From: Spirosoma aureum
GTDB taxonomy: Bacteria > Bacteroidota > Bacteroidia > Cytophagales > Spirosomataceae
Reading direction: 5' to 3'
Assembly (NCBI RefSeq): GCF_011604685.1
Contig: NZ_CP050063.1
Span: 6,675,001 to 6,739,000 of the forward strand
DNA length: 64,000 nucleotides
Below, in pieces: positions 16,701 through 47,606 of the stretch (positions are counted from its first letter, which is position 1; each line of letters starts with the position of its first letter). The position numbers and the translations under genes were made by a program. The notes below the pieces were generated by a model, which saw only the letters and a program-made list of their open reading frames with translations, was not told the origin of the DNA and did not search any database.

Positions 16701-19700
16701 GAATGGTATGACCGGATCATCAATCACCTTCAATCCAGCAACTACAACCACCTATTATGCAATCTGTCAACTAGACTGTGCTGAAAGTAGTAATTCCAAT
16801 CAGGTTCAGATTATGGTTCGTCCTGGCCCAACGGTGAGCGGCATACGGAGTTATACGACCGGCCAGACAATATCCTTAACCGCAACAGCGGCTGATGCTA
16901 CAAGCTACATCTGGTATGGCCCAGCCGGCTTCACGTCGACTGGTGCCCACTTGCGCATTTTTGGTGCCAATACCAACATGAGCGGTTCTTATACGGTCGT
17001 AGCCAGTTATGCTGAAGGGGGTTGCTCGCCGTCAACAGAGGTAATTATTACGGTAAACGGCCCTGTTATTCAGACTCAGACTATCACTCCCAGCATTGTG
17101 TGCGCTGAATCTATTCTGAGTATACCGTTCTCTACAACCGGTGATTTTGATGCAGGAAATAAATTTACTGCCCAGTTATCAGATAGTAGTGGCAGCTTTA
17201 GTTCACCCCTATCCATCGGCGAAACCACACCAGGCAGCGACACTAGTAGCCCTATTAGCGCAACGCTCCCAGCCAGTGTCCCACCAGGCAATGGCTATCG
17301 GATTCGGGTTATCAGTAGTAATCCACTAACTGAAGGCGAAGTTAGTCCAACTGTGTTAACTATTAATGCGCTCCCAACGGCGCCTACGCTAATGACTTCA
17401 GGTACACAGGTTTGCTCAGGAACAAGTGTTACCTTAACTGCCACTTGTTCGGCGGGTACTGTCCGCTGGTCTACCAATGATAGTGGACCGGTATTGATTA
17501 CTCCGGCGCTTACCAGCAATCAAAGCTATAGCGCAACCTGCGAGCAGTCTACTTACTGCGTCAGTTTACCGGCATCAGTTAGTCTAACGACTATCGGTTC
17601 GCTAACCATTGGTGAACCACTGGTCATTTGCACGTCAAGCAGTACGACAGCTATCGGAAGCATCGTAGTCAGCACTACGCTTAGCCAACCGAATCAGCTC
17701 GTTGTTCAGTATCAGCTCGAAAGTCAACAGACTCCTGACTCGTATTCGGTCGTTAGCCCGTGGAGCAGTAGCACCGCAACACTAACTAATCTACCGGTTG
17801 GTCAGTACCGTTTATCAGTGCGGGGAGTCAATCAGGACGTTCCAGAGCCAACGACTAGTTGTGGACTTGTTACAAAATCGATTCGTATCGACGCCTTGTC
17901 TGCCAGGGCCAGTTCGTATAGCACTACTTCGGGCAGCCCTGTCTCATTGTGGGTAGAAGGAACTCCTTTCAACAACGGCAATGCCCTCTGGACCAATGAA
18001 GGGGCTACCTTCAGCCCTTCCAGTCAACCACAGGGGCTTACCAATACATTTACCTGGGAAGCCTGGGTTAAACCCGACAACAACCTCTCGGGCGATAACA
18101 CCAACGAAAACTACGTACTCTACCCCTGGTTTGATGGAGCCAATTACTCATCAGCTTATGCCGGCCTGGGTATTGCCACCGGGAAAGATGGGATTCGTCT
18201 GGTTGGGCACACAGCCAACTACCTTCAGCAGATTCTCGATTACCGTATATCCATCACGGACTGGACCCACATTGCCGTTGTGTTTCAGGATAATGTAGCA
18301 ACTCTGTTGATCAATGGACAGGTTAAAGCCAGTAATGTGACTCCTCCTCAGGGTAAGATCATGTACCCTTCCAACTATGTCACCGGTTTGCCCTGGTCCA
18401 GAGATTTTGGTCGCTACAAAGGTGCGGTCGATGAAGTTCGGTTGTGGAATACGGCTCGTTCAACGACCGAGATAGCCCGCGACTACAAACAGGTCCTGGG
18501 TGGGCAGGAAACAGGATTACTTGCCTACTGGCGTTTTGAATTCGTTGATGAGGCAGGTGTCACCCCGGCCACAGGCAACTCTGGCTTATCGGCGACAGTA
18601 GGAGGCAATCCAGAAACACATGCGTTGGTTCCGGGCGTCAACACAGACCTTACCGCTCAGACGAGTGTCGTTACCTGGACAGCCATGCCCGGTAGTCAGA
18701 CCTTTACGGGCAATACTATCTCTGTTTCGCCGACCCAAAGTACAACGTATACCGTGACCCGGTCAGACCTGGCCTGCTCAGTACCCATAGCGATAAGCGT
18801 CGTTCAGGCGCCGTGTAATCTGACAGCTGTGGCCAACTCATATAGTATTGTAGCTGGTAGTCCCGTTTCATTGTGGATCGAAGGTACGCCCTTTAATAGC
18901 AGTAATGCCCTCTATACGAATCAGGGGCTTACTTTTACGCCTTCCAGCCAACCGCAAAGCCTGACCGGAACGTTTACCTGGGAAGCCTGGATCAAACCCG
19001 ACGTTAATCTCTCGGGCGATAACACCAACGAACGCTATGTGCTGTATCCCCGCTATGATGGCTCTGTCTACTCCTCAACTTATGCCGGACTAGGTATAGC
19101 CGCAGGTAAAGATGGTATTCGGCTAGTGGGACACACCGCCAATTATCTTCAGCAGATTCTTGACTACCGTACGCCCATCACGGACTGGACCCATGTGGCT
19201 GTTGTCTTCCAGAATAATGTGGCTACTCTGCTTATCGATGGCATAGCTAAGGTGAGCAACATGAGTCCCCCTCAGAACAAGATTATTTACCCCTATAACT
19301 ACATCACAGGGGTTCCCGATGGGGAATATGGTCGCTACTGGGGAGCTGTCGATGAAGTACGACTCTGGAACACCGCTCGCTCAACGACCGACATCGCCCG
19401 CGATTACAAACGACTGTTGACGGGTCAGGAAGCAGGATTACTCTCCTACTGGCAATTCGAGTCGATTGCCGATAACAAAACTCAGACAACCGGCACAGCT
19501 GCGCTTTCGGCGGCATTGGGAGGATCGTCCGATAGTTATAAGCTGGTAACAGGCATCAATACCGCGACTGCTATCCAAACGGATGTGGTGAGCTGGACAG
19601 CATTGCCTGGTGGACAAACCTTCACGGGAAACACCATTGCTGTTACACCCGCTAAAAGCACGACCTATGTAGTAAGTCGGAGTAGTAATCCGACCTGTAC

Positions 19701-22700
19701 AACCAGTGTGGGAATCTCGGTAGGAATTCTTCCCTGTTCGTTTTCACTGGTGGGCAGTGCTACACCAACATCGCTTTCGTGCGGAAGCCCGGTTAGCTTG
19801 TCAGTGGCACCAAGTGGGCCAGTAAGCGCTACGGCGGGTACTATTACATATGCATGGAGTGGTCCGGGCCCTGACAGTCTGATGTCCTTCACACAAAGTG
19901 GTCAGAGTTTCACAACAGTTCCGGCATCTGCCACGACCAGCGCCGGCGTTTCGACTACTTATACCTCAACAACGGGCATATCGACCGTAGCAACATCGGG
20001 ATCGAGTGTAGCCACTTATTCCGTGACGGCTACGCAGGGTTTCTGCACGACCAGTGGTTCGGTTAGTGTAGTACTGACGGGTGCCCCTAGCCTGTCAGTC
20101 AGCTCTCCACAAGCTATTTACCGGGAGGGTGAAAGTCTGACATTGACAGCGGCTATGTCATCTACTGTGGCTGGGCCAATTGTTTACGACTGGACGGGTC
20201 CGAACAGTTATACCGGTACAGGCCAAAAGGTAACAGTTCCTAAAGCTACTACAGCTATGGCTGGCTCTTATACAGTAGTGGCTACCATACCCAGTGGTTG
20301 TACGATCAGTGCCAGTCTGTTAGTAAAAATAATCCCAGATTCCTGTAGTTGTCAGGACTGTGATGCTCCAGAATGGCAATCTGAAACTATTTCAGTCGGC
20401 CCCGATAATACGGGAACTGATTATGCCAACATCGTAGAAAATACCTATCTGGCTCCAACACCATCAATTGGTGGAACTACGGAAATTAGGCAACAGATCA
20501 CTTATTTAGATGGATTTGGCAGACCGATACAGATCAATCAAACCAGTGCCAGTCCTTCTGGAAAAGATATAGTGCTACCTATCGAGTACGATGGATTTGG
20601 TCGAGCTATCAAAAACTATCTGCCTTATACCGATGCAGCAGGAGGAGGCTTTAAGGCTAATGCCGTCAGTATTCAATCCAGCTTCTATCAGGGCCTGAAG
20701 GGAGACGGAGCGGCTTTCTCAACAACGCTATTGGAACAGTCTCCGCTGCAACGGCTTACTCAGCAGGGATCCATTGGAGCAGCCTGGCAGCCCAATGGTG
20801 CTGATGCAAACAAAACCGGAGTAATTAAAGAGGCTTACCGACACAATACCGAAACAAATATACCCCAGCTAACCAGTGCCTACAGCGGCAACAACTGGAC
20901 TTTATCTCGCTATGCTGCTAATCAGTTATTTGTCAACGAAACTAAAGATGCGACAAATAATAAGGTAGAGGAGTTTACCGACCTATTTGGCCAGACTATC
21001 TGCAAAAAAGTATATAGCGGGGCGGAAGTGCTGACGACTTACTATGCCTATGATGACTTCGGTCGACTACGCTTTACGTTCCCACCCAAAGCCGCTCAAA
21101 AGCTGGAAAGCCAGGCTGATGGATCAGTAGATTTCACCAGCACAGCCACGGTTAAAGACCAGATCTTCTGGTACGTTTATGACGCTCGCGGGCGGGTTGT
21201 TGAAAAGAAAACGCCAGATGCAGCCCTTGAAGAGATGGTTTATAACCTACACGATCAGGTAGTGCTGTATCGGAATGGGATGCACCGTAGTAAAAGCCAA
21301 TGGATGTATTCCAAGTACGATGAAGTGGGCCGTATAATTAGCAAAGGCGTGTATGCCAGTGCTAACAGCCGAGACGTAGAGCAAGCCGCCGTAACGAACA
21401 GTTTCTCACCAGTTCCCGAATTTGGCGATGCTGCCTATCCAACCAGCGGGGTTACGGAGTTAAGCAAAAACTATTACGATGACTATGCCTTTACTGGCAA
21501 AAAGTCACCCGATCAGCCTACTGAGTTTGGATTAGGTACACTGGCAACCGAAAGTGGACCCATCACCCTGATTGGCAAGTTGACCGGTACCAAAGAAACT
21601 ATTTTGAAAGCATCGGGCGCGGCTGCAACAGCCAAAACCGACCTGTTGACAACGTACTACTATGACCAATATGGCCGGGTGGTCCAAACACGGCAGGAGA
21701 ACCATCTGGGCGGTGAGGACCTCTCATCAGTACGGCTCGACTTTGCTGGACGCACTTTAGAGACCAAGCTGACAACGAATGCCTTCAACAAGACAACCCA
21801 TGTATGGACACGCAACACCTATGATCGGGGTAACCGACTCAAAATGACCTGCCAGCGTATCAACGATGGTAAAAAGGAACCGGTCGGGCGGTTTACATAC
21901 AACGAACTGGGTGAGGTAACCGAAAAATGGCAGGGCTGTAAAATGCAGGTGATTACCTACCAGACTGACATTCGCGGACGGTTGACGAGCATTAATTCAT
22001 CGGACCCGGTACAGCTAAAGGCGAATAAGCAGTTCTTCGGGATGAAGCTGGAATATACCATTGACGATAACGTCTCTGCTCAGGTATGGGGTAGTGTACC
22101 GCACCTGCGGACCGGGGCTACCTTACCTGCCAAACGACGCTACGAATATAGTTATGATCCTATAGGACGGCTTAAGGGTGCTAATTACACGGGAGCCAGT
22201 GAAAACTTCTCGGTTAGTGGCATTAATTATGACCTCAATGGCAACTTGTTGAGTATGGTCCGCCGGGTAAGTACGCCTTCGCTGGGCGATAGCCCGAATG
22301 AAGATAACCTGAGCTATACCTACGCGCCTAACTCGAACCAGCTTAGGAACGTGCAGGATGCAGGAGTGGCGACCCCAACAAATCCTAAAAAAGCCCACTA
22401 CTTTAACGACCGGAATCAAACTGCCGACGATGGGAACCGCACTGACTTTACGGACGCCGACGATTATGCCTACGACGCTGCGGGTAATCTCATCCGCGAC
22501 CTGAACCGCGACATCCGTAGTATTGATTACAACGTGCTGGGCTTACCCGAAACGATTACGTTCGGTAATCAAACCAAAATATATTACCTTTATACGAGCG
22601 GAGGTGACAAACTGCAAAAACAGGGGGCGTACCTACCAAGTGAACAAGCCGGACCAATCCAGGCCGAACAGTACAGTCAGAAACAAATTGACTATTCGTC

Positions 22701-24036
22701 TGGTGTTGTATATACCGATCAGGCGATCAGTTTTATTCCGACTGCTGAAGGGCGCGCTTTACCACCAGTTACCGATACAGTCTCTGTTGAGTATAGATAC
22801 GAGTATCAGCAGACCGACCATTTAGGCAACCTGCGCTCGGCCTGCCATTGCGGAGAGAAGTTTGATGAGACTGGCAAGTTGGTACCCACAAAGGGCATTG
22901 AAGACCAGCGCACGGTGGTGCAGGAAAACCACTACGACCCATGGGGCCTCAACTTAGCCGATATTGAAACCCAGCCCAGTAGTGGTCTGGACTGGTGGCA
23001 GTTTAACCGCGGTAGTGAAAAAGCATTTGGCCCCGATGGCAGTTTTCAGTATGACACAGATTTCCGCCAGTATGACCCCACAATCGGGCGATTTGGCGGG
23101 GCAGATGGGTTAGCAGGAGTGTTGCCGGGCATTAACCCATATATGTTTGGCTTTAATAGTCCGGCTGGTTTTAACGATCCGACTGGACTATTTGGAGAAG
23201 GACCAATAAATGGAGGTACCCTTAATGTTTTTGTCAATGTAACAGCAAAAAGCGGACCTGGTATAGTAGGGAGAGGATTAACCATGCTCCCCTCTGCGTT
23301 GAGTGTAGCCAGACCCCTATTAGCTGGTAGTATCCAAACGCCTACAATTAGCTCTTCGTCTGGAAAGGTGACGATGTCGGAGACTTATATAGGGGCTAAT
23401 AGATCATCACCCCAGCAGCGGAGCCTTGGCAAAAGGACGTATAATCAGAACAAGTTGGCAGCAGAAATCATGGCTGATCCAACTAACATGGGGAGTAGAG
23501 GTGGAGCGTTCTTTGCGATGTATGGTGCTGGTGCTGGGGTAGCTCAAGAGTTGACAGGTCAGGCAATAGCTAAAGTAGGAAGCTACATTTGGAAAGGATC
23601 CACTATCACTTTATATAGAGGTACAAGTACAGTCAGTGAACTGAGGGCATTCAATGAAACAGGAATGATTATGAGTGATGCTGCAACAAATGCTTATGTT
23701 GAATCTTCATACATATCACAGAGGATAGAGGCCATTAATGCAGGTATGAATGCGTCTCGTGCTGCTCATGCACGTCAAGTAGCTACCTGGTGGGGCGAAG
23801 AATCATCTTATGTACAGGCCCATTCGGCTTTCTCGCAAGAAATTGATGTATTCGGGCCACGTAGTATGACATCATGGACTGATAACTTAGGTGTAGCAAA
23901 ATCGTATATGAATGGAGGAAAGTTGTTCAGGACGACAGTAGGACGCTGGAAGGCTTTAAAGCAGACATTACCTGGTGCGAATGAAGGAGAGTATCTGATT
24001 AAACATGGAGTACGAGCTAAAGTTATTCGCAAATAA
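10780..24036 (+). CDS. giant secreted RHS-repeat polymorphic toxin with ART-like C-terminal tip
   Basis: A 4418-residue exported protein. Order: signal peptide (1 to about 20); an AT-rich-encoded N-terminal domain (to about 420); repeated Cys-rich Ig-like modules (about 420-1545) of the form SCGQ.ITL.G.CQGTGC; a GWLVD...IYIDG beta module (about 1547-1655); further Ig/PKD-like modules; two LamG/concanavalin-like domains (about 2377-2661 and 2685-2968); a DUF6443-like start of the RHS region (about 3200); YD repeats; and the RHS core end FRQYDPTIGRFGGADGLAG..DPTGLFG (4095-4139). The variable tip (4140-4418) has LYRGT (R4280), SMTSWT (4362-4367) and EGE (4402-4404), in the order of the R-S-E triad of ADP-ribosyltransferase toxins. 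The tip and the next gene are more AT-rich than the RHS core, as expected of exchangeable toxin cassettes. Toxin activity is inferred; the RHS architecture is clear. Confidence 0.9.
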   Translation: MKQFLLLFTLLGCSVSLFSTIHVIDELKRRPPLTAKLPVRPPTLRTSVKRVFRKPMENKGTQISIAGPAKLITDGPHNLSITGHLLKSASLPIQKLAGPDPIHFSMRANKTSVSIGEELEITITAELPPILPNQLFFFESQRSFSLKVLMPDGFEQTGGNYYDYLTGSLSVDRSKKEEYTIKGHFSEPINEPFILLRGVKDAGSSDLFEKKQQLYIKVVPNTPVSLAKAKTATGCVLQSQPIGIIYQTKKTNSKRLRSSETNSIIVKIKDSTRYEYSLDSINFQKNNLFSISNTTGFIFIRDTLDKTCTIRIPYWYKQKKHLKSILQNASLSTDNDESCYDPNLSVGLRCDGGTSIISADNCYPDGISIFIKWYINGSYDPSYDNIGDIHNPSLGTYQFYCSCGSMNPSNNQRTITGNECSAGSADSTTCNFTPTASTPATANCSTPITLTSSCSGSDCTGITTSWSGNGINADGTGTTPSTPGTYIYTLTMAKAGCDNQSTTTSVEVSCEDCTPLWENHYKECDTLNNYRWYERDNKLCSPTYGDERPGSILSGPITQVRVGANKTDLCGTETATLQASNCNGYFYWVEDASTTNPRQVSAGIYTAGCIGSCNTTTQSITITNGSNCTPTSNPCDFAPTASASPQSVSCGQSITLSGGCQGTGCADVSYQWTTTDWRDPNGQSTIHVTAPQLNQTIYYELTLSKPDCPNQSNHTATAAVDVTCGDCSPLWETTNTYQCTDNQLQQKQTATNCGQYQEQWLAIRSTANPITITPSSYSLCNGSVMLTLTGCTGAIAWADSPYNTPNLNGYDSRQIDQAGTYTAFCYGSSGLSCDYTQTSINIDSCTPTNGPCAFSASVSPARSTVLCSNTTTFQGVCTGECAGVYYNWNGPNLNGETNADLTLTPNTAGIFVYTFSVSKLGCDNVATTTAQLDVSCTPPANPCDFAPTASATPQTVTCGQPITLIGGCQGTGCDGVVYRWSTTGWTDLTGQASLTLTAPNANQPLYYELGLTKDNCPNEAEDATSVAITISCTSPANPCDFTSGASTPATALCNSSITLTGSCSGAGCNGVTYSWSGNGISGSNVNNTITTPGASGTYIYTLTMAKAGCDNQSTTTSVEVSCEDCTPLWENHYKECDTLNNYRWYERDNKPCSPTYGDERPGSILSGPITQVRVGANKTDLCGTETATLQASNCNGYFYWVEDASTTNPRQVSAGIYTAGCIGSCNTTTQSITITNGSNCTPTSDSCAFSASVNPANSSILCNTTTILQGVCSGECGGVSHQWEGPNLNGETNADLTLTPNTAGTFVYTFSISKLGCAHVATATAQLNVSCGCTPTWEVTSDYRCEEGQLQRKWTNTNLDCPTYTDEWRNSDPKASPITITPSSYTLCNGSVMLTLTGCTGAIAWADSPYNTPNLNGYDSRQIDQAGTYTAFCYGSSGLSCDYTQTWVTIDTCTETTCSLTATASASPQSISCGQPITLSGDCQGIDCGNVIYTWLGQGVTEQAGSSLTLTAPATTGTYEYTLTLGKSGCSNTVQATTQITVSCQEPSALTGTVDETTCTRIRGWLVDVNNDEQSQKVRIYIDGVLQATVWADGPRPDVRAYINQVHGATGTYDKFEFNWAVPTVFEQGRHEVRVTDTTGNWEFSSHPLFFGADAPTLTPTSTTICAGQSATLTAGCTAGEVVWSNGGTGNVLITGNLTATISYTATCNAEGCLSPSATVTVVVIQRPVFGFSAAGSNLIPVAASTTNGPANMTAIICSGDYLTLSDLSWPSSNVRLIEHFMSNGVAGLPTTRPMNDLDAATAASIFNQRHGPYTVDTTGIEGTIIESFTPYVDTNGNNQYDSDIDCTGDSITLFYQIIPTPAKPVVVTASCGAISTARSVTLTASGCSDMVKWELSSGTSTGPAVVVHVSQTTTFGARCTNAANCQSDTAAVTVHFLNLQAPTVATSTLAICSGESVTLSANGCESGTTIKWSNGMTGSSITFNPATTTTYYAICQLDCAESSNSNQVQIMVRPGPTVSGIRSYTTGQTISLTATAADATSYIWYGPAGFTSTGAHLRIFGANTNMSGSYTVVASYAEGGCSPSTEVIITVNGPVIQTQTITPSIVCAESILSIPFSTTGDFDAGNKFTAQLSDSSGSFSSPLSIGETTPGSDTSSPISATLPASVPPGNGYRIRVISSNPLTEGEVSPTVLTINALPTAPTLMTSGTQVCSGTSVTLTATCSAGTVRWSTNDSGPVLITPALTSNQSYSATCEQSTYCVSLPASVSLTTIGSLTIGEPLVICTSSSTTAIGSIVVSTTLSQPNQLVVQYQLESQQTPDSYSVVSPWSSSTATLTNLPVGQYRLSVRGVNQDVPEPTTSCGLVTKSIRIDALSARASSYSTTSGSPVSLWVEGTPFNNGNALWTNEGATFSPSSQPQGLTNTFTWEAWVKPDNNLSGDNTNENYVLYPWFDGANYSSAYAGLGIATGKDGIRLVGHTANYLQQILDYRISITDWTHIAVVFQDNVATLLINGQVKASNVTPPQGKIMYPSNYVTGLPWSRDFGRYKGAVDEVRLWNTARSTTEIARDYKQVLGGQETGLLAYWRFEFVDEAGVTPATGNSGLSATVGGNPETHALVPGVNTDLTAQTSVVTWTAMPGSQTFTGNTISVSPTQSTTYTVTRSDLACSVPIAISVVQAPCNLTAVANSYSIVAGSPVSLWIEGTPFNSSNALYTNQGLTFTPSSQPQSLTGTFTWEAWIKPDVNLSGDNTNERYVLYPRYDGSVYSSTYAGLGIAAGKDGIRLVGHTANYLQQILDYRTPITDWTHVAVVFQNNVATLLIDGIAKVSNMSPPQNKIIYPYNYITGVPDGEYGRYWGAVDEVRLWNTARSTTDIARDYKRLLTGQEAGLLSYWQFESIADNKTQTTGTAALSAALGGSSDSYKLVTGINTATAIQTDVVSWTALPGGQTFTGNTIAVTPAKSTTYVVSRSSNPTCTTSVGISVGILPCSFSLVGSATPTSLSCGSPVSLSVAPSGPVSATAGTITYAWSGPGPDSLMSFTQSGQSFTTVPASATTSAGVSTTYTSTTGISTVATSGSSVATYSVTATQGFCTTSGSVSVVLTGAPSLSVSSPQAIYREGESLTLTAAMSSTVAGPIVYDWTGPNSYTGTGQKVTVPKATTAMAGSYTVVATIPSGCTISASLLVKIIPDSCSCQDCDAPEWQSETISVGPDNTGTDYANIVENTYLAPTPSIGGTTEIRQQITYLDGFGRPIQINQTSASPSGKDIVLPIEYDGFGRAIKNYLPYTDAAGGGFKANAVSIQSSFYQGLKGDGAAFSTTLLEQSPLQRLTQQGSIGAAWQPNGADANKTGVIKEAYRHNTETNIPQLTSAYSGNNWTLSRYAANQLFVNETKDATNNKVEEFTDLFGQTICKKVYSGAEVLTTYYAYDDFGRLRFTFPPKAAQKLESQADGSVDFTSTATVKDQIFWYVYDARGRVVEKKTPDAALEEMVYNLHDQVVLYRNGMHRSKSQWMYSKYDEVGRIISKGVYASANSRDVEQAAVTNSFSPVPEFGDAAYPTSGVTELSKNYYDDYAFTGKKSPDQPTEFGLGTLATESGPITLIGKLTGTKETILKASGAAATAKTDLLTTYYYDQYGRVVQTRQENHLGGEDLSSVRLDFAGRTLETKLTTNAFNKTTHVWTRNTYDRGNRLKMTCQRINDGKKEPVGRFTYNELGEVTEKWQGCKMQVITYQTDIRGRLTSINSSDPVQLKANKQFFGMKLEYTIDDNVSAQVWGSVPHLRTGATLPAKRRYEYSYDPIGRLKGANYTGASENFSVSGINYDLNGNLLSMVRRVSTPSLGDSPNEDNLSYTYAPNSNQLRNVQDAGVATPTNPKKAHYFNDRNQTADDGNRTDFTDADDYAYDAAGNLIRDLNRDIRSIDYNVLGLPETITFGNQTKIYYLYTSGGDKLQKQGAYLPSEQAGPIQAEQYSQKQIDYSSGVVYTDQAISFIPTAEGRALPPVTDTVSVEYRYEYQQTDHLGNLRSACHCGEKFDETGKLVPTKGIEDQRTVVQENHYDPWGLNLADIETQPSSGLDWWQFNRGSEKAFGPDGSFQYDTDFRQYDPTIGRFGGADGLAGVLPGINPYMFGFNSPAGFNDPTGLFGEGPINGGTLNVFVNVTAKSGPGIVGRGLTMLPSALSVARPLLAGSIQTPTISSSSGKVTMSETYIGANRSSPQQRSLGKRTYNQNKLAAEIMADPTNMGSRGGAFFAMYGAGAGVAQELTGQAIAKVGSYIWKGSTITLYRGTSTVSELRAFNETGMIMSDAATNAYVESSYISQRIEAINAGMNASRAAHARQVATWWGEESSYVQAHSAFSQEIDVFGPRSMTSWTDNLGVAKSYMNGGKLFRTTVGRWKALKQTLPGANEGEYLIKHGVRAKVIRK
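12227..12675 (+). repeat. 449-bp direct repeat, copy A
   Basis: Identical to 14063-14511 except for four substitutions (about 99%). The offset of 1836 bp is a whole number of codons (612), so both copies read in the same frame. It encodes part of an Ig-like module plus a Cys-rich linker (CTPLWENHYKEC...). Confidence 0.95.
13112..13289 (+). repeat. 178-bp identical direct repeat, copy A
   Basis: Identical over 178 bp to 14936-15113 (offset 1824 bp, 608 codons), with more diverged similarity beyond both ends. It encodes a Cys-bearing module containing LCNGSVMLTLTGCTGAIAW. Confidence 0.93.
14063..14511 (+). repeat. 449-bp direct repeat, copy B
   Basis: Second copy of the segment at 12227-12675. 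Flanking sequences differ sharply at both ends, so the boundaries of the duplicated or converted tract are well defined. Confidence 0.95.
14936..15113 (+). repeat. 178-bp identical direct repeat, copy B
   Basis: Second copy of 13112-13289. Its offset differs by 12 bp from that of the 449-bp repeat, so the two tracts are separate copy events, or one larger event followed by small in-frame indels. Confidence 0.93.
17908..19683 (+). repeat. tandem LamG-domain duplication
   Basis: Two in-frame copies (17908-18764 and 18832-19683, offset 924 bp) encode LamG/concanavalin-like domains with the motifs TFTWEAW.KPD, DWTH.AVVFQ, VDEVRLWNTARSTT and GLL.YW.FE. The copies are clearly homologous but diverged, so they are older than the near-identical repeats upstream. 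Confidence 0.85.
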
Positions 24037-40326: not shown

Positions 40327-41136
40327 TCATAGCTTTTCAGCACAGTACTTGCAATATTTAGCATCCGAATCATGCCCCTGACGGCCACAATTGGGACAGG
40401 CTTGCGGGTTAATTTCCCGCCGATTGGCTATCCCCGTTAAGCTGACGGCAACGATGCCTGTCGGAACGGCAATAATCACGTAACCCAACAGCATGATCAG
40501 GCTGGCAATCAGCTTCCCCATCCAGGTACTGGGTACAATATCGCCATAACCTACTGTGGTGATCGTTATGATTGCCCAATAAATACTAGCTGGAATACTT
40601 TTAAAGCCATTACTGTGGCCTTCAACAACGTACATCATTGCTCCCAGCGTGATGACCAGGGTAAAGATGGCCACGAAGAACACGGTGATTTTAGCCCGAC
40701 TTTCCCGCAGGGAGGCTGCTAGTAGATCAGCCGCCGAGGTGTATTCCTGCAATTTTAATATACGAAAAATGCGCAATAGCCGCAGAATTCGGATTACCAC
40801 GAGTTCATGGGAACCGAGTAAAAATAGGCTTAGGTAGGCGGGCAGAATAGCCAGAAAATCAACCAGCCCAAAGAAGCTGAATAGATATTGAAGTGGGTTA
40901 CGTACGGCAATCAGTCTAAGAATAAACTCCAGGGTGAACACAACCGTGAACGCCCACTCCAGTATCTGGAAGATTTCTTTGTTGGCTAAAGCAGGAACAC
41001 TTTCGGCAATAACAGCGGCAACGCTTAGCAAAATAAGTAGCAATAGAGCTATATCGAAGAGCCGTCCAGCCCATGTATCATTTTCAAAGACAATTGTATG
41101 CAGCCGATTGCGGATGCGTTGCCAACGAGTCTGCAT
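40327..41136 (-). CDS. voltage-gated-type K+ channel with C-terminal zinc ribbon
   Basis: 269 residues with a six-transmembrane voltage-gated channel plan: S1-S3 in the first 110 residues, an S4 segment with regularly spaced Arg (VIRILRLLRIFRILKL, about 114-129), the pore loop with K+ selectivity filter TITTVGYGD (about 191-199), and S6. The C-terminus carries a four-Cys zinc ribbon, CPNC and CKYC (about 244-264), which could be a cytoplasmic gating or oligomerisation module. It is located in the inner membrane. A possible -7 element lies at 41210-41217. The zinc ribbon is not part of classical bacterial Kv channels. Confidence 0.9.
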   Translation of the reverse strand: MQTRWQRIRNRLHTIVFENDTWAGRLFDIALLLLILLSVAAVIAESVPALANKEIFQILEWAFTVVFTLEFILRLIAVRNPLQYLFSFFGLVDFLAILPAYLSLFLLGSHELVVIRILRLLRIFRILKLQEYTSAADLLAASLRESRAKITVFFVAIFTLVITLGAMMYVVEGHSNGFKSIPASIYWAIITITTVGYGDIVPSTWMGKLIASLIMLLGYVIIAVPTGIVAVSLTGIANRREINPQACPNCGRQGHDSDAKYCKYCAEKL

Positions 41137-42288
41137 GGCGTTTCCGGGTAGATGGTAAGATGAGCCCCGTTAAGGAGAGTTATTGGCTGCAACCCAGCCG
41201 TTATTAACACAAAAGTAAAAAAAGATTATAGTCACTTACAGCACGATGAATAGATGAGCAAGGGTTCTGGAACGACACCGTATGTTGCTTTAAATCTGTA
41301 GTATGGCACAAATCTTAAACCGGCTCACCGATGCTTTTGCCAATCTAAACTTATAGGCCGGGAATTTACAGGAAAGGGTTTACAGGGAGAGTCTTCTTGA
41401 GGAGACATGACAGAAAGCTACATGGTTTTCCTCTATGTTGCACTGACGGACCATCCTACGGCCGTAAAGCCACTCATTCCCTTTTCGGTACACGGCAAAA
41501 TCGACCCGTTCACCCATACAGCTGTTTTTGGCGTTTTACCATAAACTGAACTACAAGCAGGATTAGGGCTTTCTGGTTTTCGAGCGACCGATTAATGGCT
41601 AATCATGTACAATCACATTTAGCCTCTCCGACTGAATCAGTCAAATAAACCGCTAAATGCCTAATCACTTGGTTTTAAGAGCAATCACAGTACTACTTCT
41701 GTTCCTGCAACAAGTTTAGTAATTAATGAAGGCTTTGCAACACAGGTAGGCATCATAATAAATTGCTGGCTAAGCGGGCCTAAAAATAATGGCATAGAAT
41801 ATAGCGATAATTACCTAATATAACAAAATAATATATTAATCCCTTTATTTATAAATTGTCTAATTATCAATCAACTACATTAACGAGAAATTAATGAATT
41901 GAATACTATTTTTTAAGTATAATTACCCATATTTTTTTATAGTACTATATAGCTATGAAACCAAACATGAATCCCTCTTTAGTTAAGTACCTATTTAATC
42001 AATTATTAGATAAATACGGGCACTGCGTTGTCAATTTCTACTACTTGCCAGGATCTACGAAAAATCGTGGCAGGGCTATCGTGAACGTTCCATTATCGTG
42101 ACATAGTTAAAGGTTGATTGAGCTGTAGCCTTTAACTGCTCTTTACAGAAATCTTCCAGAATCGACCAGATTTGGCCGGTAAAGTAAAACTACAGCTATT
42201 GAACGCCTGAATCAGAGTACCTACCCATCCACTTACGGTAAACTAAAATAAGGCATTTAATATGCCCAGTGAAAATCCTTAGACTATC
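41137..42288. other. 1.15-kb intergenic region, mostly AT-rich
   Basis: No gene could be supported between the divergently transcribed K+ channel and sensor kinase genes. The part at about 41800-42000 is very AT-rich. A 45-codon open frame at 41407-41544 (MTESYMVFLYVALTDHPTAV) shows some protein-like composition but no recognised motif and is left uncalled. No convincing long hairpin or repeat was seen. Confidence 0.5.
41210..41217 (-). promoter_or_regulatory. possible -7 element for the K+ channel gene
   Basis: Read on the - strand the sequence is TACTTTTG, matching TAnnTTTG. It lies 74 bp upstream of the channel start codon. No good -33 TTG was found at the usual spacing, so support is limited. 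Confidence 0.3.
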
Positions 42289-45200
42289 ATGGATAATTCT
42301 ATTGTAGAAGCTTCAGAACTAGTGCAGAGCGTGTTAATGGCCTCACCAAATGGGGTATTGGTTCTTCAGCCAATTTTTAGCATCAAAGGCAGACGACTCG
42401 ATCTGTTTCTAACATCCATTAATGCAGCAGCCCAGGAAGACCTGCACTGTCCGGCCCGTGAAGTGCTGGGGCAGTCACTCGCTCGATTTTTCCCCCATCT
42501 GGCTGACAGTGAAGCCATGGACCGCTATTGGAATGTCATTAATACCGGCCAACCGGATCAGTTCGAGATCACCAGCATTCGTTCTGGCCAATTCACGGCT
42601 AGCATCTTTGACGTATCGGTCGTTCCAATCCAACACAGTCTATTGATAACATATACAGAAATGCCCCAAACACCTTCCAATGCGGATGCGACCGAATCCG
42701 GTTCTACACTGTTGCAACAGGCCTTCGATGAATCAGCCAATGGCCTGTCCGTCTTTGAAGTTATGCTGGACGAACGCGGTCATCCCTGCGATTTTCGGCT
42801 CGTTATGCTCAATAAGGCGGGCCGGGCAATGAGTGGCTCGCTGGGTAAGGAATTAATAGGACAGACGCTCTGGGAAATGTACCCGGCCACCAAAATTAAT
42901 GGTCTTTTCGATCGATATGTCCAAGTTTGGCAAACAGGTGTCCTGTTTTCATCGGAACATTATTACCCCGAATACGATATTTGGCGGGATGTCAAAATCG
43001 TCCGGGTCGAGCAGGGCGTATTAGTGAGCTATGCTGACATTACGGCCCTAAAAAAATCGGAGGAGCAGGCACGACAGCAAGCTCATCTGGTCGATGATCT
43101 GCTAGAGCGGGTACCTGTAGGGATAGCCGTTCTAACACCGGTAACCCATGAAAGCAATGTTGGCAAACGCCAGGTATATTTTCAGGTGGTACGGGTTAAC
43201 TCCCTCTTTGAAGAAGTGATTGGCCTTGCGGCCTCCCAAACAGTTGGTCAGTTCACCGATCGGCTCTTTTCCAAAACGAATGCAGAAAATTTGCTGATTT
43301 GTGGCCTGTCAGCACTGGAAAGCGGAAAAAGCCAAGTCATTGAGCTGGAATTGACTACCTGTTCCTCTTCGCGCTGGTATCAGTTATCAGTGGCTCCCAA
43401 AGGCGAACAACTGATTGTCAGTTTCACCAACATTACTCCGCTAAAACATGCCCAGCAGCACCAGACGGAACTGCTTGATTCGGTTCTTAGCGGTTCACAA
43501 AACGCCATTCTAGCTTTTGAAGCGGTTCGAGACGCTCATGGTGCAATAGTCGATTTTCGCTACGTCCTGCAGAATGAAGCCAAGCGGCAGCTGGCAGGAC
43601 GCACCGATGAACAGACTCTGGGCCGTACAATGCTGGAGGTATTTCCGCAGGTCAGGGAAAAAGGGTTGCTGGATCGCTATATCGATGTCGTCACAACTGG
43701 CTATCCACTGCGGACTCAGACGGAATTTAATTATGGCAATAAATTGGGGTGGTACGATTTGTCGGCAGTGAAATATGGGGATGGCCTGGTACTCACCATT
43801 CAGGAAAAAACAGCTGAACAGCAGATTTTTCATCAATTACAAACCAATTCCGAGCTGCTTCAAACCATTATCAATAACACCCCTTCGGGTTTAGTGTTCT
43901 GGGAAGCCGTACGAGATGATAGGAATCAGCTAATTGATTTCCGCTACCAATTGAGTAACCAGATGAACACTATTACGACAGGATATTCGGCAGAAACGCT
44001 GATCGGTCAGGATCTGCTCAGTCTTTTCCCCCGTTTCCGCGGAAGTCTACTGGAAGAAGCCCTACGTAAAACTGTCGAAACAGGCCTAACGCAATGGATG
44101 ATGTTCACTGACTACATCGAGCCTAATGGGGGCTGGTTTGATACCCAGTTTATCCGTGTCGGTGATGGCGTATTGATGAGTTATATCGATGTCACCGAAG
44201 CGCATCAGGCTCAACTTGCCCAAAAGCAACATGCCGAATTGATGCAGCTGGTTATCAATGCTCAACCGGCAGGCATCGTTCTATATGAACCGGTTCGAGA
44301 GCAAACCATTTTTGGCCAGCCCGGGCCGATTATTGATTTTACGTATGTACTGGTGAACGAGACCGAACGTCGGCTGACCGGCCGGTCAGACAGCGAATTA
44401 ATCGGCCATCGAATGAAGCAGCTTTTTCCCAGCGAACAGGGACAGGAATTCTTTGCCATTCTGGCCGAAGTCGCTGAAACCGGCCAGCCAAAAGAGTGGT
44501 TATTCCCCTTTTTTAGTGATGGCATACGAGGCTGGTTTCAGGCGTCCCTGGTTCGTCACGGTAATCAGGTGCTCTTTACGTTCCTGGACGTAACGGAACT
44601 CAAGCGTCAGCAGCAGGCACTGGAGCATACCAATCAGAACCTTAGACGGAGCAATGAGAGTCTGCAGAAATTTGCCTACGTGGCCAGCCACGATTTACAG
44701 GAGCCGCTTCGTAAGATTCAATCGTTCGGTGATATGCTGGCTACGAATTACGGCCAGGGATTGGATGAAACGGCTCTGGATATTATTGCCCGGATGCAGG
44801 GATCAGCCAACCGGATGTCCAGGCTGATCCGGCATTTACTCACCTATTACCGTTTATCCACCCAACAGGTTCAGACAAAATCCATTCAGCTAACGAATCT
44901 GCTAACCCATGTAACTGGTAATCTATCCAGGGCGATGCAGGAGTCGAATGCCTGCATTGAATGGGGGGATCTACCTGTTGTTCAGGGTGATGAAGGGCAG
45001 TTAGAGCAACTGTTTCATAACCTGCTCTCAAATGCCATCAAGTACCGTCATCCTGGCATGTCGCCCAACATTCAGATTACCTGTCGAACGGTAGATGCAC
45101 AGAACTTACCCATTCTGGTCGTTCAGACCATTCCCTCCACGAATCACACTGGGGCACCCCACTTGTTTCACGAAATCAATATTACTGATAACGGGATAGG

Positions 45201-45396
45201 GTTTGACGAAAAATATCTGGACCGGATATTCCAGGTTTTTCAGCGTTTACATGGTAAAGATCAATATCCCGGTACAGGAATCGGGCTGGCTATCTGTCAG
45301 AAGGTGGCCGAAAACCATCGGGGTGCCCTGACGGCCACCAGCCAACCCGGTGCGGGCGCAACCTTTAGTGTCTATCTGCCCATTTCACCGGCATAG
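42289..45396 (+). CDS. soluble sensor histidine kinase with six PAS domains
   Basis: 1035 residues, no signal peptide and no membrane helix, so a cytoplasmic kinase. Six PAS/PAC-like modules can be placed at about 8-125, 140-258, 262-385, 386-505, 506-650 and 651-785, several with the typical YADIT/LDVTE-type end. A coiled linker (about 775-795) leads to the HisKA H-box ASHDLQEPLRKI with phospho-acceptor His801, then the HATPase domain with N-box LFHNLLSNAIKYRHP, G1 DNGIGFDE and G2 GTGIGLAI. No receiver domain is present. The PYP gene follows 42 bp after the stop, which suggests that this kinase is the partner of the photoreceptor; this link is inferred from gene order. Confidence 0.92.
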   Translation: MDNSIVEASELVQSVLMASPNGVLVLQPIFSIKGRRLDLFLTSINAAAQEDLHCPAREVLGQSLARFFPHLADSEAMDRYWNVINTGQPDQFEITSIRSGQFTASIFDVSVVPIQHSLLITYTEMPQTPSNADATESGSTLLQQAFDESANGLSVFEVMLDERGHPCDFRLVMLNKAGRAMSGSLGKELIGQTLWEMYPATKINGLFDRYVQVWQTGVLFSSEHYYPEYDIWRDVKIVRVEQGVLVSYADITALKKSEEQARQQAHLVDDLLERVPVGIAVLTPVTHESNVGKRQVYFQVVRVNSLFEEVIGLAASQTVGQFTDRLFSKTNAENLLICGLSALESGKSQVIELELTTCSSSRWYQLSVAPKGEQLIVSFTNITPLKHAQQHQTELLDSVLSGSQNAILAFEAVRDAHGAIVDFRYVLQNEAKRQLAGRTDEQTLGRTMLEVFPQVREKGLLDRYIDVVTTGYPLRTQTEFNYGNKLGWYDLSAVKYGDGLVLTIQEKTAEQQIFHQLQTNSELLQTIINNTPSGLVFWEAVRDDRNQLIDFRYQLSNQMNTITTGYSAETLIGQDLLSLFPRFRGSLLEEALRKTVETGLTQWMMFTDYIEPNGGWFDTQFIRVGDGVLMSYIDVTEAHQAQLAQKQHAELMQLVINAQPAGIVLYEPVREQTIFGQPGPIIDFTYVLVNETERRLTGRSDSELIGHRMKQLFPSEQGQEFFAILAEVAETGQPKEWLFPFFSDGIRGWFQASLVRHGNQVLFTFLDVTELKRQQQALEHTNQNLRRSNESLQKFAYVASHDLQEPLRKIQSFGDMLATNYGQGLDETALDIIARMQGSANRMSRLIRHLLTYYRLSTQQVQTKSIQLTNLLTHVTGNLSRAMQESNACIEWGDLPVVQGDEGQLEQLFHNLLSNAIKYRHPGMSPNIQITCRTVDAQNLPILVVQTIPSTNHTGAPHLFHEINITDNGIGFDEKYLDRIFQVFQRLHGKDQYPGTGIGLAICQKVAENHRGALTATSQPGAGATFSVYLPISPA

Positions 45397-45438
45397 CATA
45401 TCCCATTGCCATACGCACCACTACTTAACCAACCAAAT

Positions 45439-45816
45439 GTGAACAAAATACTCACTTTTTCTGATCAGGACCTGCTTGAATCGCTGGAACAGCAAACCCA
45501 TGAACAAGTGGAAGAAGCTCCCTTTGGACTGGTTCGCATGAGCCGGGAGGGCATCGTGGTCGCCTATGGCAAATTGGAGTCGTATATTACCGGTATTTCG
45601 AAGGAATATGCTCTGGGTAAGTATTATTTTACACAGATTGCGCCTTGTGCCAACAATCGGATGATCGCAGCCAAATTTGCCCAACCTGCACTGGATGAGG
45701 AATTAGACTATATCCTGACTTACGTAAGCGAACCAGTTAAGGTTCGCTTACGGCTGCTTAAATCGCCTACGAGCCGCTATCAATATTTTTTGGTTAATCT
45801 CAAGGCCGTGGCTTGA
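45439..45816 (+). CDS. pyp: photoactive yellow protein (PYP) homologue
   Basis: 125 residues from the GTG at 45439 (VNKILTFSDQDLLE), the same length as Halorhodospira halophila PYP and aligning with it end to end with one residue offset; an upstream TTG at 45406 would add 11 non-matching residues. Residues that define PYP are present: chromophore Cys70 in QIAPCANN (PYP Cys69), Tyr43 and Glu47 in AYGKLE (Tyr42, Glu46), and Thr51 in YITG (Thr50). The PYP Arg52 position is Ile53. The fold is a single PAS domain binding p-coumarate by a thioester and responding to blue light. An AMP-forming ligase gene two genes downstream would activate the chromophore. No tyrosine ammonia-lyase gene is in the window, so the source of coumarate is not seen. 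Confidence 0.85.
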   Translation: MNKILTFSDQDLLESLEQQTHEQVEEAPFGLVRMSREGIVVAYGKLESYITGISKEYALGKYYFTQIAPCANNRMIAAKFAQPALDEELDYILTYVSEPVKVRLRLLKSPTSRYQYFLVNLKAVA

Positions 45817-46064
45817 CGGGAGTAAACGCCCAACAACTGCTTTTTAAGCGGTGGCCATTGGTGACACATCCGGGCCTGTCTGGCCATAACCTGCTGGATA
45901 CATTTATCGGCTTGCTGCCGTCGGTCAGAGGGGCCATTATCGGCGCCAAGCTCGAATCAGGCTTGATCATTGAACGGGAATCTTACCGTATCCGGTTCAT
46001 CAATGGGCTCGGCATTAATCGAACGGCAGTTCAGCCTGATGATCGAGAAAATCCCGCCCTATAG
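45813..46064 (+). CDS. small unknown protein in the PYP operon
   Basis: 83 residues beginning with a TTG whose bases overlap the PYP stop (TTGA, 45813-45816), an arrangement typical of translational coupling. The sequence (LLFKRWPLVTHPGLSGHNLL... GLIIERESYRIRFINGLG) has no signal peptide, membrane segment or recognised motif and no internal Met. A GTG at about 45861 is another possible start. It sits between the photoreceptor and the ligase, so it may help in chromophore supply or signalling. Function unknown; coding status supported by tight packing rather than homology. Confidence 0.5.
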   Translation: MTGVNAQQLLFKRWPLVTHPGLSGHNLLDTFIGLLPSVRGAIIGAKLESGLIIERESYRIRFINGLGINRTAVQPDDRENPAL

Positions 46065-46129
46065 TCTACTGTTTACGTTGACGACGTAACGGATTCATTA
46101 ATCAAAGTTAATCTCCTTCACCAACGCTC

Positions 46130-47233
46130 ATGATCTGGAATTCGGGTAATGTACAACGAATTGTTCTCGATATGGCGGGTCGAATTCTCCAGCAGCAGCA
46201 TGCCGGGTTACCAACAAAAGTTTCGTCCGCATTGGACCTGTATCGCGATTTGGGCATGAATTCCCTGCAACGGATGGAACTGGCGGCCCATCTAAATGAG
46301 TTTTTTGGTCTTTTCGAAACCTCGGCCGACAACTATTTGCTGGCCAGCACCCGATTAGACTACTGGACGAACTGTATTTTACGAGCCCGTACGGAGGCCG
46401 ATGACACGCTGACGTTTCGCACATCGGGTACCAGCGGGCAAGCGGCTCCCGTGCGACACAGTATGATATCGTTGCTGGCAGAAGCTCACTATTTAGCGCA
46501 GCTCATACCCATACCCGATCAGATTATTAGCCTGGTTGGCGCCAATCACATCTATGGTTTCATTTACACCATTTTGCTGCCAGCGCTCTGGAGCCGTCCC
46601 CTGAGGTTGCTAGCGGAGGTAACAGTGGCTGATATCAGCGCCAATTCCCTGATCATTGGTACGCCCTTCACCTGGGAGTTATTGTATCAATCACTAAGGA
46701 AGGGCGCATCGATTTCCTGCCGTGGCATAACATCAACTGCCACTATGTTACCTGATCTGTTTAATCAACTCAATCAGGCAGACGTATTCCTGACGGAAAT
46801 CTACGGTTCGACGGATACAGGTGGAATAGCCTATCGTTATCATCATGAGGCTCCGTTTGCATTATTTCCCTACATAACGCTACTACCTGACGAGCCTCCA
46901 ACCATCGTCCGTTCTGACACCGGCGCTTCCTACTACATTCCTGATCGACTCGAACGAGTGACGGACCGGTCCATCCGGCTTTTGGGGCGCTTCGATGAGT
47001 CCGTCTCCATTGCTGGGGTGAACGTTCATCTCTCTCATATTCGGCGAGTCATCGAAGCATGTCCACTGGTGGCTGACTGCGACGTATATGCCAAGTCAGT
47101 ATCAGGCAGGCTGGATTTATATAGTGCCATTCGTTTGCGAACTCATACAGAATCAAACCGAGAGGCCTGCCTGCGCTGGCTTCGGGATCGATTGAGCGCG
47201 CCCGAAATGCCGAAACATGTATACCTGTACTAA
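46130..47233 (+). CDS. AMP-forming acyl/coumarate ligase with N-terminal carrier-like domain
   Basis: 367 residues. Residues 1 to about 75 look like an acyl-carrier domain, with DLGMNSLQRMEL (S45 at the usual phosphopantetheine position, with Asn in place of Asp before it). The adenylation core follows: A3 FRTSGTSGQ (about 96-104), a central region, A5 EIYGSTDTGG, and A8 LLGRFDESVSIAGVNVHLSHI. The protein stops at MPKHVYLY, just before the place where the A10 motif with its catalytic Lys normally lies, and is much shorter than typical 4-coumarate-CoA ligases (about 540). From position two genes after PYP it most likely activates p-coumarate for attachment to Cys70. Substrate and the effect of the missing A10 motif are inferences. 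Confidence 0.75.
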   Translation: MIWNSGNVQRIVLDMAGRILQQQHAGLPTKVSSALDLYRDLGMNSLQRMELAAHLNEFFGLFETSADNYLLASTRLDYWTNCILRARTEADDTLTFRTSGTSGQAAPVRHSMISLLAEAHYLAQLIPIPDQIISLVGANHIYGFIYTILLPALWSRPLRLLAEVTVADISANSLIIGTPFTWELLYQSLRKGASISCRGITSTATMLPDLFNQLNQADVFLTEIYGSTDTGGIAYRYHHEAPFALFPYITLLPDEPPTIVRSDTGASYYIPDRLERVTDRSIRLLGRFDESVSIAGVNVHLSHIRRVIEACPLVADCDVYAKSVSGRLDLYSAIRLRTHTESNREACLRWLRDRLSAPEMPKHVYLY

Positions 47234-47606
47234 TTCGAGCTAAACAGTCAGTCAACCGGCTTTGCCACTGGCTCGGCCTTAGTATTCAATTCTGCCTGCA
47301 CGATCGGGTGATTTCAGGGCAGGCCAACCCAATAATCGTTCATTTAAAACGTCTTTTTTGAAATGGTCTTATGAACCCTCATTACAAAGGACTCCATTCG
47401 CACACAGATAAAATCTTATGCACTGACTATCAGCCAGTAACGACCCAAAATTGATAGTTTTTGACCAGTTCCTGACTAAAATTAACTCTACTTTTATATA
47501 GCCTCAAGGCAACCCCTGCTAACAGGCAGGTTTCGTAAAAGCGAATTGTCCAACTGATTTTCAAGCCCTCAATCACGTCAACCAGAAGCTCGAAATTCGT
47601 TTGGTC
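47234..47606 (+). other. intergenic region, no supported feature
   Basis: About 370 bp between the ligase gene and a polytopic membrane protein gene. No credible reading frame, repeat or strong hairpin was seen. A TACTTTTA sequence at 47489-47496 resembles a -7 element but lacks the final G and a correctly spaced -33. Confidence 0.4.

What the first reader, a model, noticed from the sequence alone, without database searches (positions are those of the whole stretch)
42289..47233. Complete-looking photoactive yellow protein operon in a Bacteroidetes genome, with its own six-PAS kinase
The 125-residue product at 45439-45816 aligns along its whole length with PYP and keeps the chromophore Cys (C70), the Tyr and Glu that hold the chromophore phenolate (Y43, E47) and the Thr (T51). 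A large soluble histidine kinase gene lies 42 bp upstream and a chromophore-activating-type ligase lies downstream in the same orientation. In known systems PYP and a p-coumarate ligase are adjacent, so the locus reads as a blue-light signalling unit. The coupling of the kinase to PYP is inferred from gene order.
Basis: partly seen in the sequence, partly recalled or inferred. Interest (0 to 1): 0.88.

Follow-up and report, generated by a model that had tools for sequence, protein, structure and literature searches.

The report
Light sensor with odd chromophore loader
A bacterium of the Spirosoma lineage carries genes for a blue-light sensor with its own signalling kinase, and the enzyme that should attach the light-absorbing molecule is unusual: it has a built-in carrier-like domain and lacks a lysine held to be key in its enzyme class, so how the sensor gets its pigment is an open, testable question.

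Summary
Window 45439-45816 encodes a photoactive yellow protein (PYP) with Y42, E46, T50 and C69 kept. A multi-PAS histidine kinase lies 42 bp upstream and a PYP-type coumarate ligase downstream. PYPs of Spirosoma are already named in databases, so the PYP itself is not news.

Supported: PYP and ligase co-occur (16 and 17 of 198 relatives, 16 shared). A homologous kinase lies at 17 of 18 PYP loci, two of them without ligase.

Not supported: 'complete'. The small PAS-like gene that nine of 18 loci carry beside PYP is decayed here, and this genome has no aromatic ammonia-lyase (PF00221).

New, as far as I could search: (1) PYP ligases carry an N-terminal acyl-carrier-like domain with an invariant serine (80 of 80 rows). 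(2) A Bacteroidota branch lacks the A10 catalytic lysine (0 of 15 rows; 64 of 65 elsewhere) and holds a branch-specific lysine, K322 (15 of 15; 0 of 65 elsewhere). I propose that coumarate, probably from outside, is loaded on the ligase's own phosphopantetheine arm and passed to PYP. The carrier domain is well supported by sequence; the transfer and the role of K322 are inferred.

The parts
42289..45396 (+). Multi-PAS histidine kinase (5 segments match PAS models, 1 does not; HisKA, HATPase_c), the presumed output partner of PYP
   Evidence: Pfam; homologs at 17 of 18 PYP loci; best hit of the L036 PYP-side kinase in this genome at 1055 bits, next 437
45439..45816 (+). Photoactive yellow protein, GTG start; chromophore Cys codon 45646-45648
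   Evidence: TIGR02373, PDB phmmer, AlphaFold/Foldseek, residue check
45813..46129 (+). Decayed copy of a small PAS-like gene (135-139 aa in relatives); internal deletion and loss of frame; the 83-aa ORF 45813-46064 is a remnant
   Evidence: DNA and protein comparison with L021 and others
46130..46405 (+). N-terminal acyl-carrier-like domain of the ligase; putative phosphopantetheine serine S45 at 46262-46264
   Evidence: PF00550 22.9 bits over gathering cut-off 20.8 on the domain alone; profile hits ACPs in PDB; S in 80 of 80 rows
46406..47233 (+). Short AMP-forming (ANL) ligase core of the PYP-ligase family, ending before the A10 lysine motif; branch-specific K322 codon 47093-47095
   Evidence: TIGR02372, alignment A1, loci table, K322, model

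Best explanation
This is a blue-light signalling unit of the Spirosoma lineage. Shown by sequence: a PYP with the chromophore-site residues kept, a kinase that follows PYP across relatives, and a PYP-type ligase whose N-terminus is an acyl-carrier-like domain. Inferred: a host phosphopantetheinyl transferase arms S45 of the ligase; the ANL core activates p-coumarate and loads it on that arm; the arm hands the coumaroyl group to C70 of PYP. As no aromatic ammonia-lyase was found, p-coumarate most likely comes from outside (plant matter is a guess). Light isomerises the chromophore, and PYP alters the kinase directly or, in some relatives, with the small PAS-like protein that is broken here. Because M100, proposed to catalyse re-isomerisation, is replaced in this subfamily, dark recovery should be slow. 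This ligase branch lacks the A10 lysine; either single-turnover loading tolerates this, or K322 has taken over part of its role.
For: PYP. Purifying selection against S. endophyticum: dN/dS (NG86) 0.105 PYP, 0.151 ligase, 0.133 kinase. Co-occurrence: PYP in 16 of 198 relatives, ligase in 17 of 198 at E <= 1e-30, 16 shared. PYP in the fetched flank of the ligase in 76 of 80 loci. Kinase: 15 of 18 loci directly upstream on the same strand, 2 more beyond the ligase on the other strand, 1 without it but with another kinase; S. pollinicola has two extra PYP loci with the kinase but no ligase. Carrier domain; Ser in 80 of 80 rows, 119 of 119 and 78 of 79 proteins. Three PPTase hits in the genome. 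No PF00221 match.
Against: No biochemistry: phosphopantetheinylation, coumaroyl transfer and kinase control are untested. Loss of the A10 lysine argues against efficient adenylation, and the P-loop of this branch is also loose at positions 105-106 (P in 2 of 15, K in 7 of 15; others 52 and 56 of 65). The lack of ammonia-lyase is a trait of the genus (only G009 of the same-genus genomes has one), so it says little about PYP itself. PYP and ligase score under their curated NCBIfam cut-offs. Only 34 of 60 full-length ligases reach E 0.01 with PF00550, the window's full protein just misses its cut-off (20.1 against 20.8), and the PDB hits of the domain profile are weak (best E 4e-4).
Confidence: 0.66

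Rival explanations
1. Conventional route: the ligase makes free p-coumaroyl-CoA, which then reacts with apo-PYP; the carrier-like domain is only structural.
For: Halorhodospira pCL and TAL activities are reported as experimentally shown, with p-coumaroyl-CoA as the donor (PMC12826048 section 8).
Against: The serine is kept in 80 of 80 rows while identity to the window drops to 28-35% in L055-L119; a purely structural role would not need it. 15 PDB sequences at E <= 0.01, all carrier proteins or a carrier-bearing enzyme by name.
Confidence: 0.3
2. This ligase branch has lost adenylation and only passes on coumaroyl groups made by another ligase or taken from CoA.
For: 0 of 15 rows and 0 of 50 proteins P0061-P0110 keep the A10 tail; no cryptic tail downstream in 15 of 15 rows; [quoted passage not shown] loose P-loop at 105-106.
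Against: Other columns that I take for P-loop, A5, A7 and A8 sites are invariant or nearly so (98-100, 103, 226, 272, 287, 289: 80 of 80; 225: 79; 230: 78), so nucleotide binding seems under selection; K322 is fixed exactly where A10 is gone.
Confidence: 0.25
3. The kinase is only a neighbour and PYP signals elsewhere.
For: Coupling rests on gene order and homology; in L030 and L034 the kinase lies beyond the ligase on the other strand, and in L035 it is absent.
Against: Kept beside PYP copies without ligase; the window kinase is far above the 71 other matches in the genome.
Confidence: 0.15
4. Apo or differently liganded PYP: without ammonia-lyase and with an impaired ligase the protein binds another ligand or none.
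For: No PF00221 match, A10 loss, pocket changes R52I, F62Y, T70A, F96L, M100S.
Against: C69 and E46 in 48 of 48 and Y42 in 46 of 48 Spirosoma-type PYPs; a ligase match in all 16 PYP genomes (in G099 it is split over two frames at a contig end).
Confidence: 0.12

Closest known systems
PYP operon of Halorhodospira halophila (pyp, pCL, TAL), as told in PMC12826048 section 8
   Same: PYP fold and chromophore residues; a ligase assigned to the pCL model TIGR02372 downstream of pyp.
   Different: No TAL found; a multi-PAS kinase upstream; decayed small PAS-like gene; ligase without A10 lysine; M100 and R52 replaced. I did not have the Halorhodospira ligase itself to compare.
PYPs annotated in Spirosoma, Fibrella, Rudanella (NCBI names; Spirosoma in Table 1 of PMC6273459)
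   Same: Same subfamily, 66-84% identical for P0006-P0052; kinase-PYP-ligase order in most loci.
   Different: The window strain has lost the small PAS-like gene; I found no description of the operon, carrier domain or A10 loss in the searches named under Tried and rejected.
Ppr of Rhodospirillum centenum (PYP-phytochrome-kinase) and pyp operons with HisKA upstream (8 in Table 2 of PMC12826048)
   Same: PYP tied to a histidine kinase.
   Different: Here PYP is a separate protein and the kinase has PAS repeats without phytochrome.
EntE-EntB adenylation/carrier fusions (3rg2, 4iz6)
   Same: ANL core joined to a carrier domain.
   Different: Carrier is N-terminal; the proposed acceptor is a photoreceptor cysteine, not a peptide synthetase; the ANL core is short and lacks A10.

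Membership tests
Photoactive yellow protein family | Cys69, Tyr42, Glu46 at the chromophore site | tested here: met
   C70, Y43, E47 of P0001
Photoactive yellow protein family | PYP fold | tested here: met
   TM 0.85 to 2phy, ranks 1-40 PYP, Ppr-PYP or FAST
Photoactive yellow protein family | TIGR02373 profile match | tested here: inconclusive
   E 7e-18 over positions 3-120 but 64.9 bits against cut-off 143; PMC9664959 says the model's seed has only four PYPs (passage)
Photoactive yellow protein family | Covalent p-coumaroyl chromophore and photocycle | not testable with these tools
   needs spectroscopy
PYP-associated 4-coumarate--CoA ligase (TIGR02372) | Profile match and linkage to pyp | tested here: inconclusive
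   E 3.5e-56, 190.5 bits under cut-off 334.7; PYP in 76 of 80 related loci
PYP-associated 4-coumarate--CoA ligase (TIGR02372) | A10 lysine (LPxxxxGKxxDW) of the adenylating core | tested here: not met
   absent in window; 0 of 15 branch rows, 64 of 65 others; the motif aligns with the GK of solved ANL enzymes. So: same family by descent, not filed as a canonical 4-coumarate--CoA ligase
Acyl carrier domain (PF00550) | Curated score and DSL serine | tested here: met
   22.9 bits over 20.8 on the domain alone (whole protein 20.1); S45
Acyl carrier domain (PF00550) | Phosphopantetheine attached | not testable with these tools
   three PPTase hits in the genome only show it is possible
Canonical pyp-pCL-TAL chromophore pathway | Tyrosine ammonia-lyase in the genome | tested here: not met
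   no PF00221 match in the single-contig genome; the same search rings in 5 of 14 control genomes

The most novel reading that the evidence does not exclude
PYP is charged not by free coumaroyl-CoA but by a self-loading carrier-ligase that passes the chromophore from its own pantetheine arm to the photoreceptor cysteine, wherever this ligase family occurs; and in one Bacteroidota branch the catalytic lysine has moved from the A10 loop to a new site, K322, in the same C-terminal domain.
Probability: 0.3. Interest if true: 0.8.

Novelty: new variant of a known kind. Interest (0 to 1): 0.6.

Why it matters
PYP is a standard model photoreceptor, yet what it signals to is still open (PMC12826048 abstract), and its loading is taken to run through free coumaroyl-CoA. 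A carrier-like domain kept in the ligase of several phyla would change the loading model and is quickly testable. A branch of aryl ligases that lacks the A10 lysine while fixing another lysine would be a natural experiment on the two-step ANL mechanism. Kinases that follow PYP even without the ligase give a defined signalling partner to test.

Tried and rejected
Whole-length structure search of the ligase: Foldseek and VIA-align align residues from 1 on to full ANL enzymes, which could suggest that residues 1-90 are the ANL N-terminus. Rejected on sequence: the N-terminal profile finds ACPs in PDB and PF00550, and no ANL enzyme among the 60 hits shown; but the ranges given by VIA cannot exclude partial overlap. 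No structure of the domain alone was predicted.

The place of K322 in the active site could not be measured (no coordinates available); its role is a guess.

A decayed gene in 41137-42288 was sought: no protein hit better than E 0.024 and one 93-bp DNA match to L021. Promoter-like sites in 41100-47600 are no more than in shuffles, 10 against mean 10.5.

A cryptic A10 tail in another frame after the ligase stop: none in 15 of 15 rows. L068, the one other row without A10, is a MAG sequence that ends early. Not all Bacteroidota lost A10: L103 (Bacteroidetes bacterium J049), with no PYP in its locus, keeps GK and falls outside the branch. The tree tool warns of long branches, L054 among them.

The small gene as a PAS protein: of four relatives' copies tested, two match PAS_8 at E 0.003-0.009, below the cut-off, and two match nothing; 'PAS-like' is my reading.

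Literature: 'photoactive yellow protein' with 'phosphopantethein' (3 papers), with 'acyl carrier protein' (7 papers, 6 listed), with 'Spirosoma' (1 paper), with 'M100A' (none), with 'Met100', with coumaroyl/ligase/apo: nothing on a carrier domain in the PYP ligase in the listings or in what I opened. Seen: PMC12826048 abstract, passages, sections 5 and 8; PMC9664959 passages and section 7; PMC6273459 passages and section 14; PMC8388817 and PMC3992019 passages. Only open-licence PMC papers are searched; no supplements were read. NCBI already names three of the ligases 'phosphopantetheine-binding protein' (P0076, P0080, P0100), so the domain is seen at database level.

The Fisher test on ammonia-lyases (2 of 14 against 27 of 35, p 8e-5) used 50 of 80 loci with L054 left out (it has a fragment hit), and is not corrected for kinship; I do not rest on it.

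Full report
WHAT IS THERE. On the + strand lie a 1035-aa histidine kinase (42289-45396), a 125-aa PYP (GTG 45439-45816), an 83-aa ORF (45813-46064) and a 367-aa ligase (46130-47233). The window is part of an 8.9 Mb single-contig genome; the nearest named ligase is that of Spirosoma endophyticum, 85%.

PYP. TIGR02373 E 7e-18 (under cut-off), 1otd E 3.7e-11. AlphaFold pLDDT 90.4, TM 0.85 to 2phy. In Halorhodospira numbering Y42, E46, T50, A67, P68, C69, Y94, Y98 are kept in the window; R52, F62, T70, F75, F92, F96, M100 are I, Y, A, I, L, L, S. In 48 Spirosoma-type proteins (window, P0006-P0052) E46, T50 and C69 are 48 of 48, Y42 46 of 48 (2 Phe), M100 0 of 48 (37 C, 10 S, 1 Y); eight more distant proteins (P0053-P0060) have M in 4 and T in 4; in 66 PYPs of loci L055-L119 M100 is 65 of 66. 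Met100 was proposed to catalyse re-isomerisation (PMC9664959 passage), so slow recovery is expected; that is inference.

KINASE. Pfam finds PAS, HisKA and HATPase_c; five of six segments of about 130 residues match a PAS model. In 18 PYP loci of 16 genomes (window plus 17 fetched; tandem pairs counted once) a homologous kinase (42-82% identity, alignments of 520 residues or more) is directly upstream in 15, beyond the ligase on the other strand in 2 (L030, L034), absent in 1 (L035). The L036 kinase hits the window kinase at 1055 bits; the next of 72 matches in this genome has 437. In seven loci a small response-regulator-like gene also lies upstream (cluster; two of two tested match PF00072).

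THE THIRD GENE IS BROKEN. Nine of 18 loci have a 135-139 aa protein right after PYP. Pfam support for PAS is weak, but it is 31-39% identical over at least 110 residues to the N-terminal part of a protein with a HATPase_c domain that lies between PYP and ligase in S. spitsbergense (L035) and a Chitinophagales bacterium (L054). Window 45817-46132 aligns with the S. endophyticum gene but has an internal deletion and loses frame. L037 holds a fragment; L035 has the fused form; six loci have none. PYP, ligase and kinase stay under purifying selection against S. endophyticum (dN/dS 0.105, 0.151, 0.133, NG86). So the unit here works, if at all, without that protein.

CO-OCCURRENCE. PYP in 16 of 198 relatives; ligase at E <= 1e-30 in 17 of 198; 16 shared; hypergeometric 1.2e-22, not corrected for kinship. 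The odd one, G047, is a draft whose ligase sits on a 3.3 kb contig.

LIGASE: CARRIER DOMAIN. Residues 1-92 alone match PF00550 above its cut-off (22.9 against 20.8; 9 of 20 segments at E <= 0.1); the whole protein scores 20.1, just under; 34 of 60 full proteins match at E <= 0.01. A profile of 20 segments gives 71 PDB sequences at E <= 10, 60 shown; 15 are at E <= 0.01, all carrier proteins or a carrier-bearing enzyme by name (best PigH, E 4e-4), aligned on the serine in the three alignments shown; at least one weaker hit, a Mediator subunit, is not. Helices at 5-20, 45-59 and 76-89 fit a carrier domain. A scan of genome contigs gave 242 relatives, 80 kept; PYP lies in 76 of these 80 loci, in Bacteroidota, Pseudomonadota, Thermodesulfobacteriota and Acidobacteriota. 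The serine is present in 15 of 15 rows of the window's branch and 65 of 65 others (L053 left out as cut), and in 119 of 119 proteins new (120 listed of 266) and 78 of 79 (exception P0139); these sets overlap.

LIGASE: A10 LOSS. The C-terminal LPxxxxGKxxDW motif of other members aligns with the GK of solved ANL enzymes. It is absent in 15 of 15 rows of the branch (window, L040-L052, L054), while 64 of 65 others keep the lysine (62 GK, L087 and L099 variants; L068 lacks it). P0061-P0110: 0 of 50; set: 119 of 119 (118 by pattern, P0218 by eye). Of P0112-P0139, 22 match the pattern, 4 more have GK with another ending, P0122 and P0124 were not resolved; P0111 is truncated. The 15 are one branch, support 100/100, all labelled Bacteroidota; L103, another Bacteroidetes MAG, keeps GK and lies outside. 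No tail is hidden downstream. K322 is K in 15 of 15 rows and 0 of 65 others (M in 52), in 50 of 50 proteins P0061-P0110 and 0 of 119, and by eye in the G047 ligase, which also lacks A10. [quoted passage not shown] Against an active adenylating enzyme stands also a loose P-loop at 105-106.

CHROMOPHORE SUPPLY. No PF00221 match in this genome, and only 2 of 16 PYP genomes have one: G009's lies by a FabG-like and a thioesterase-like gene, G099's by a hutI-like gene (my reading). 77 of 198 relatives have one, of the same genus only G009, so the lack is a trait of the lineage. One tannase/feruloyl-esterase family match exists. PMC12826048 already notes that TAL is in only 7 of 113 pyp operons and that uptake of coumarate is possible (section 8 read).

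VERDICT. The PYP is a member of a known kind; its ligase, with carrier-like domain and without A10, makes a new variant. The kinase link is well supported as genetics, untested as biochemistry. Loading through the carrier arm and K322 as substitute are proposals.

Noticed in passing
10780-24036: A 4418-aa ORF with DUF6443 and laminin-G-like domains, which I take for an RHS-repeat type protein; its C-terminal segment resembles, to my eye only, an ADP-ribosyltransferase-type domain (recalled, not tested).
   Followed up: partly
41137-42288: 1.15 kb upstream of the kinase; no ORF of 60 aa or more lies between 41158 and 42289, and there is no clear similarity to neighbours in relatives.
   Followed up: partly
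L027, L029: Two genomes of genus g8 (named Fibrella forsythiae and Fibrivirga algicola in L047, L046) carry two PYP genes in tandem after one kinase.
   Followed up: no
L043: A contig labelled Flavobacterium sp. SUN052 holds a ligase that sits among Spirosoma ligases (63% identity; with S. sordidisoli 99/92); mislabel or transfer.
   Followed up: no
L023:17572-17787: A second, weaker relative (32%) of the window's PAS-like remnant about 9 kb from the PYP operon.
   Followed up: no
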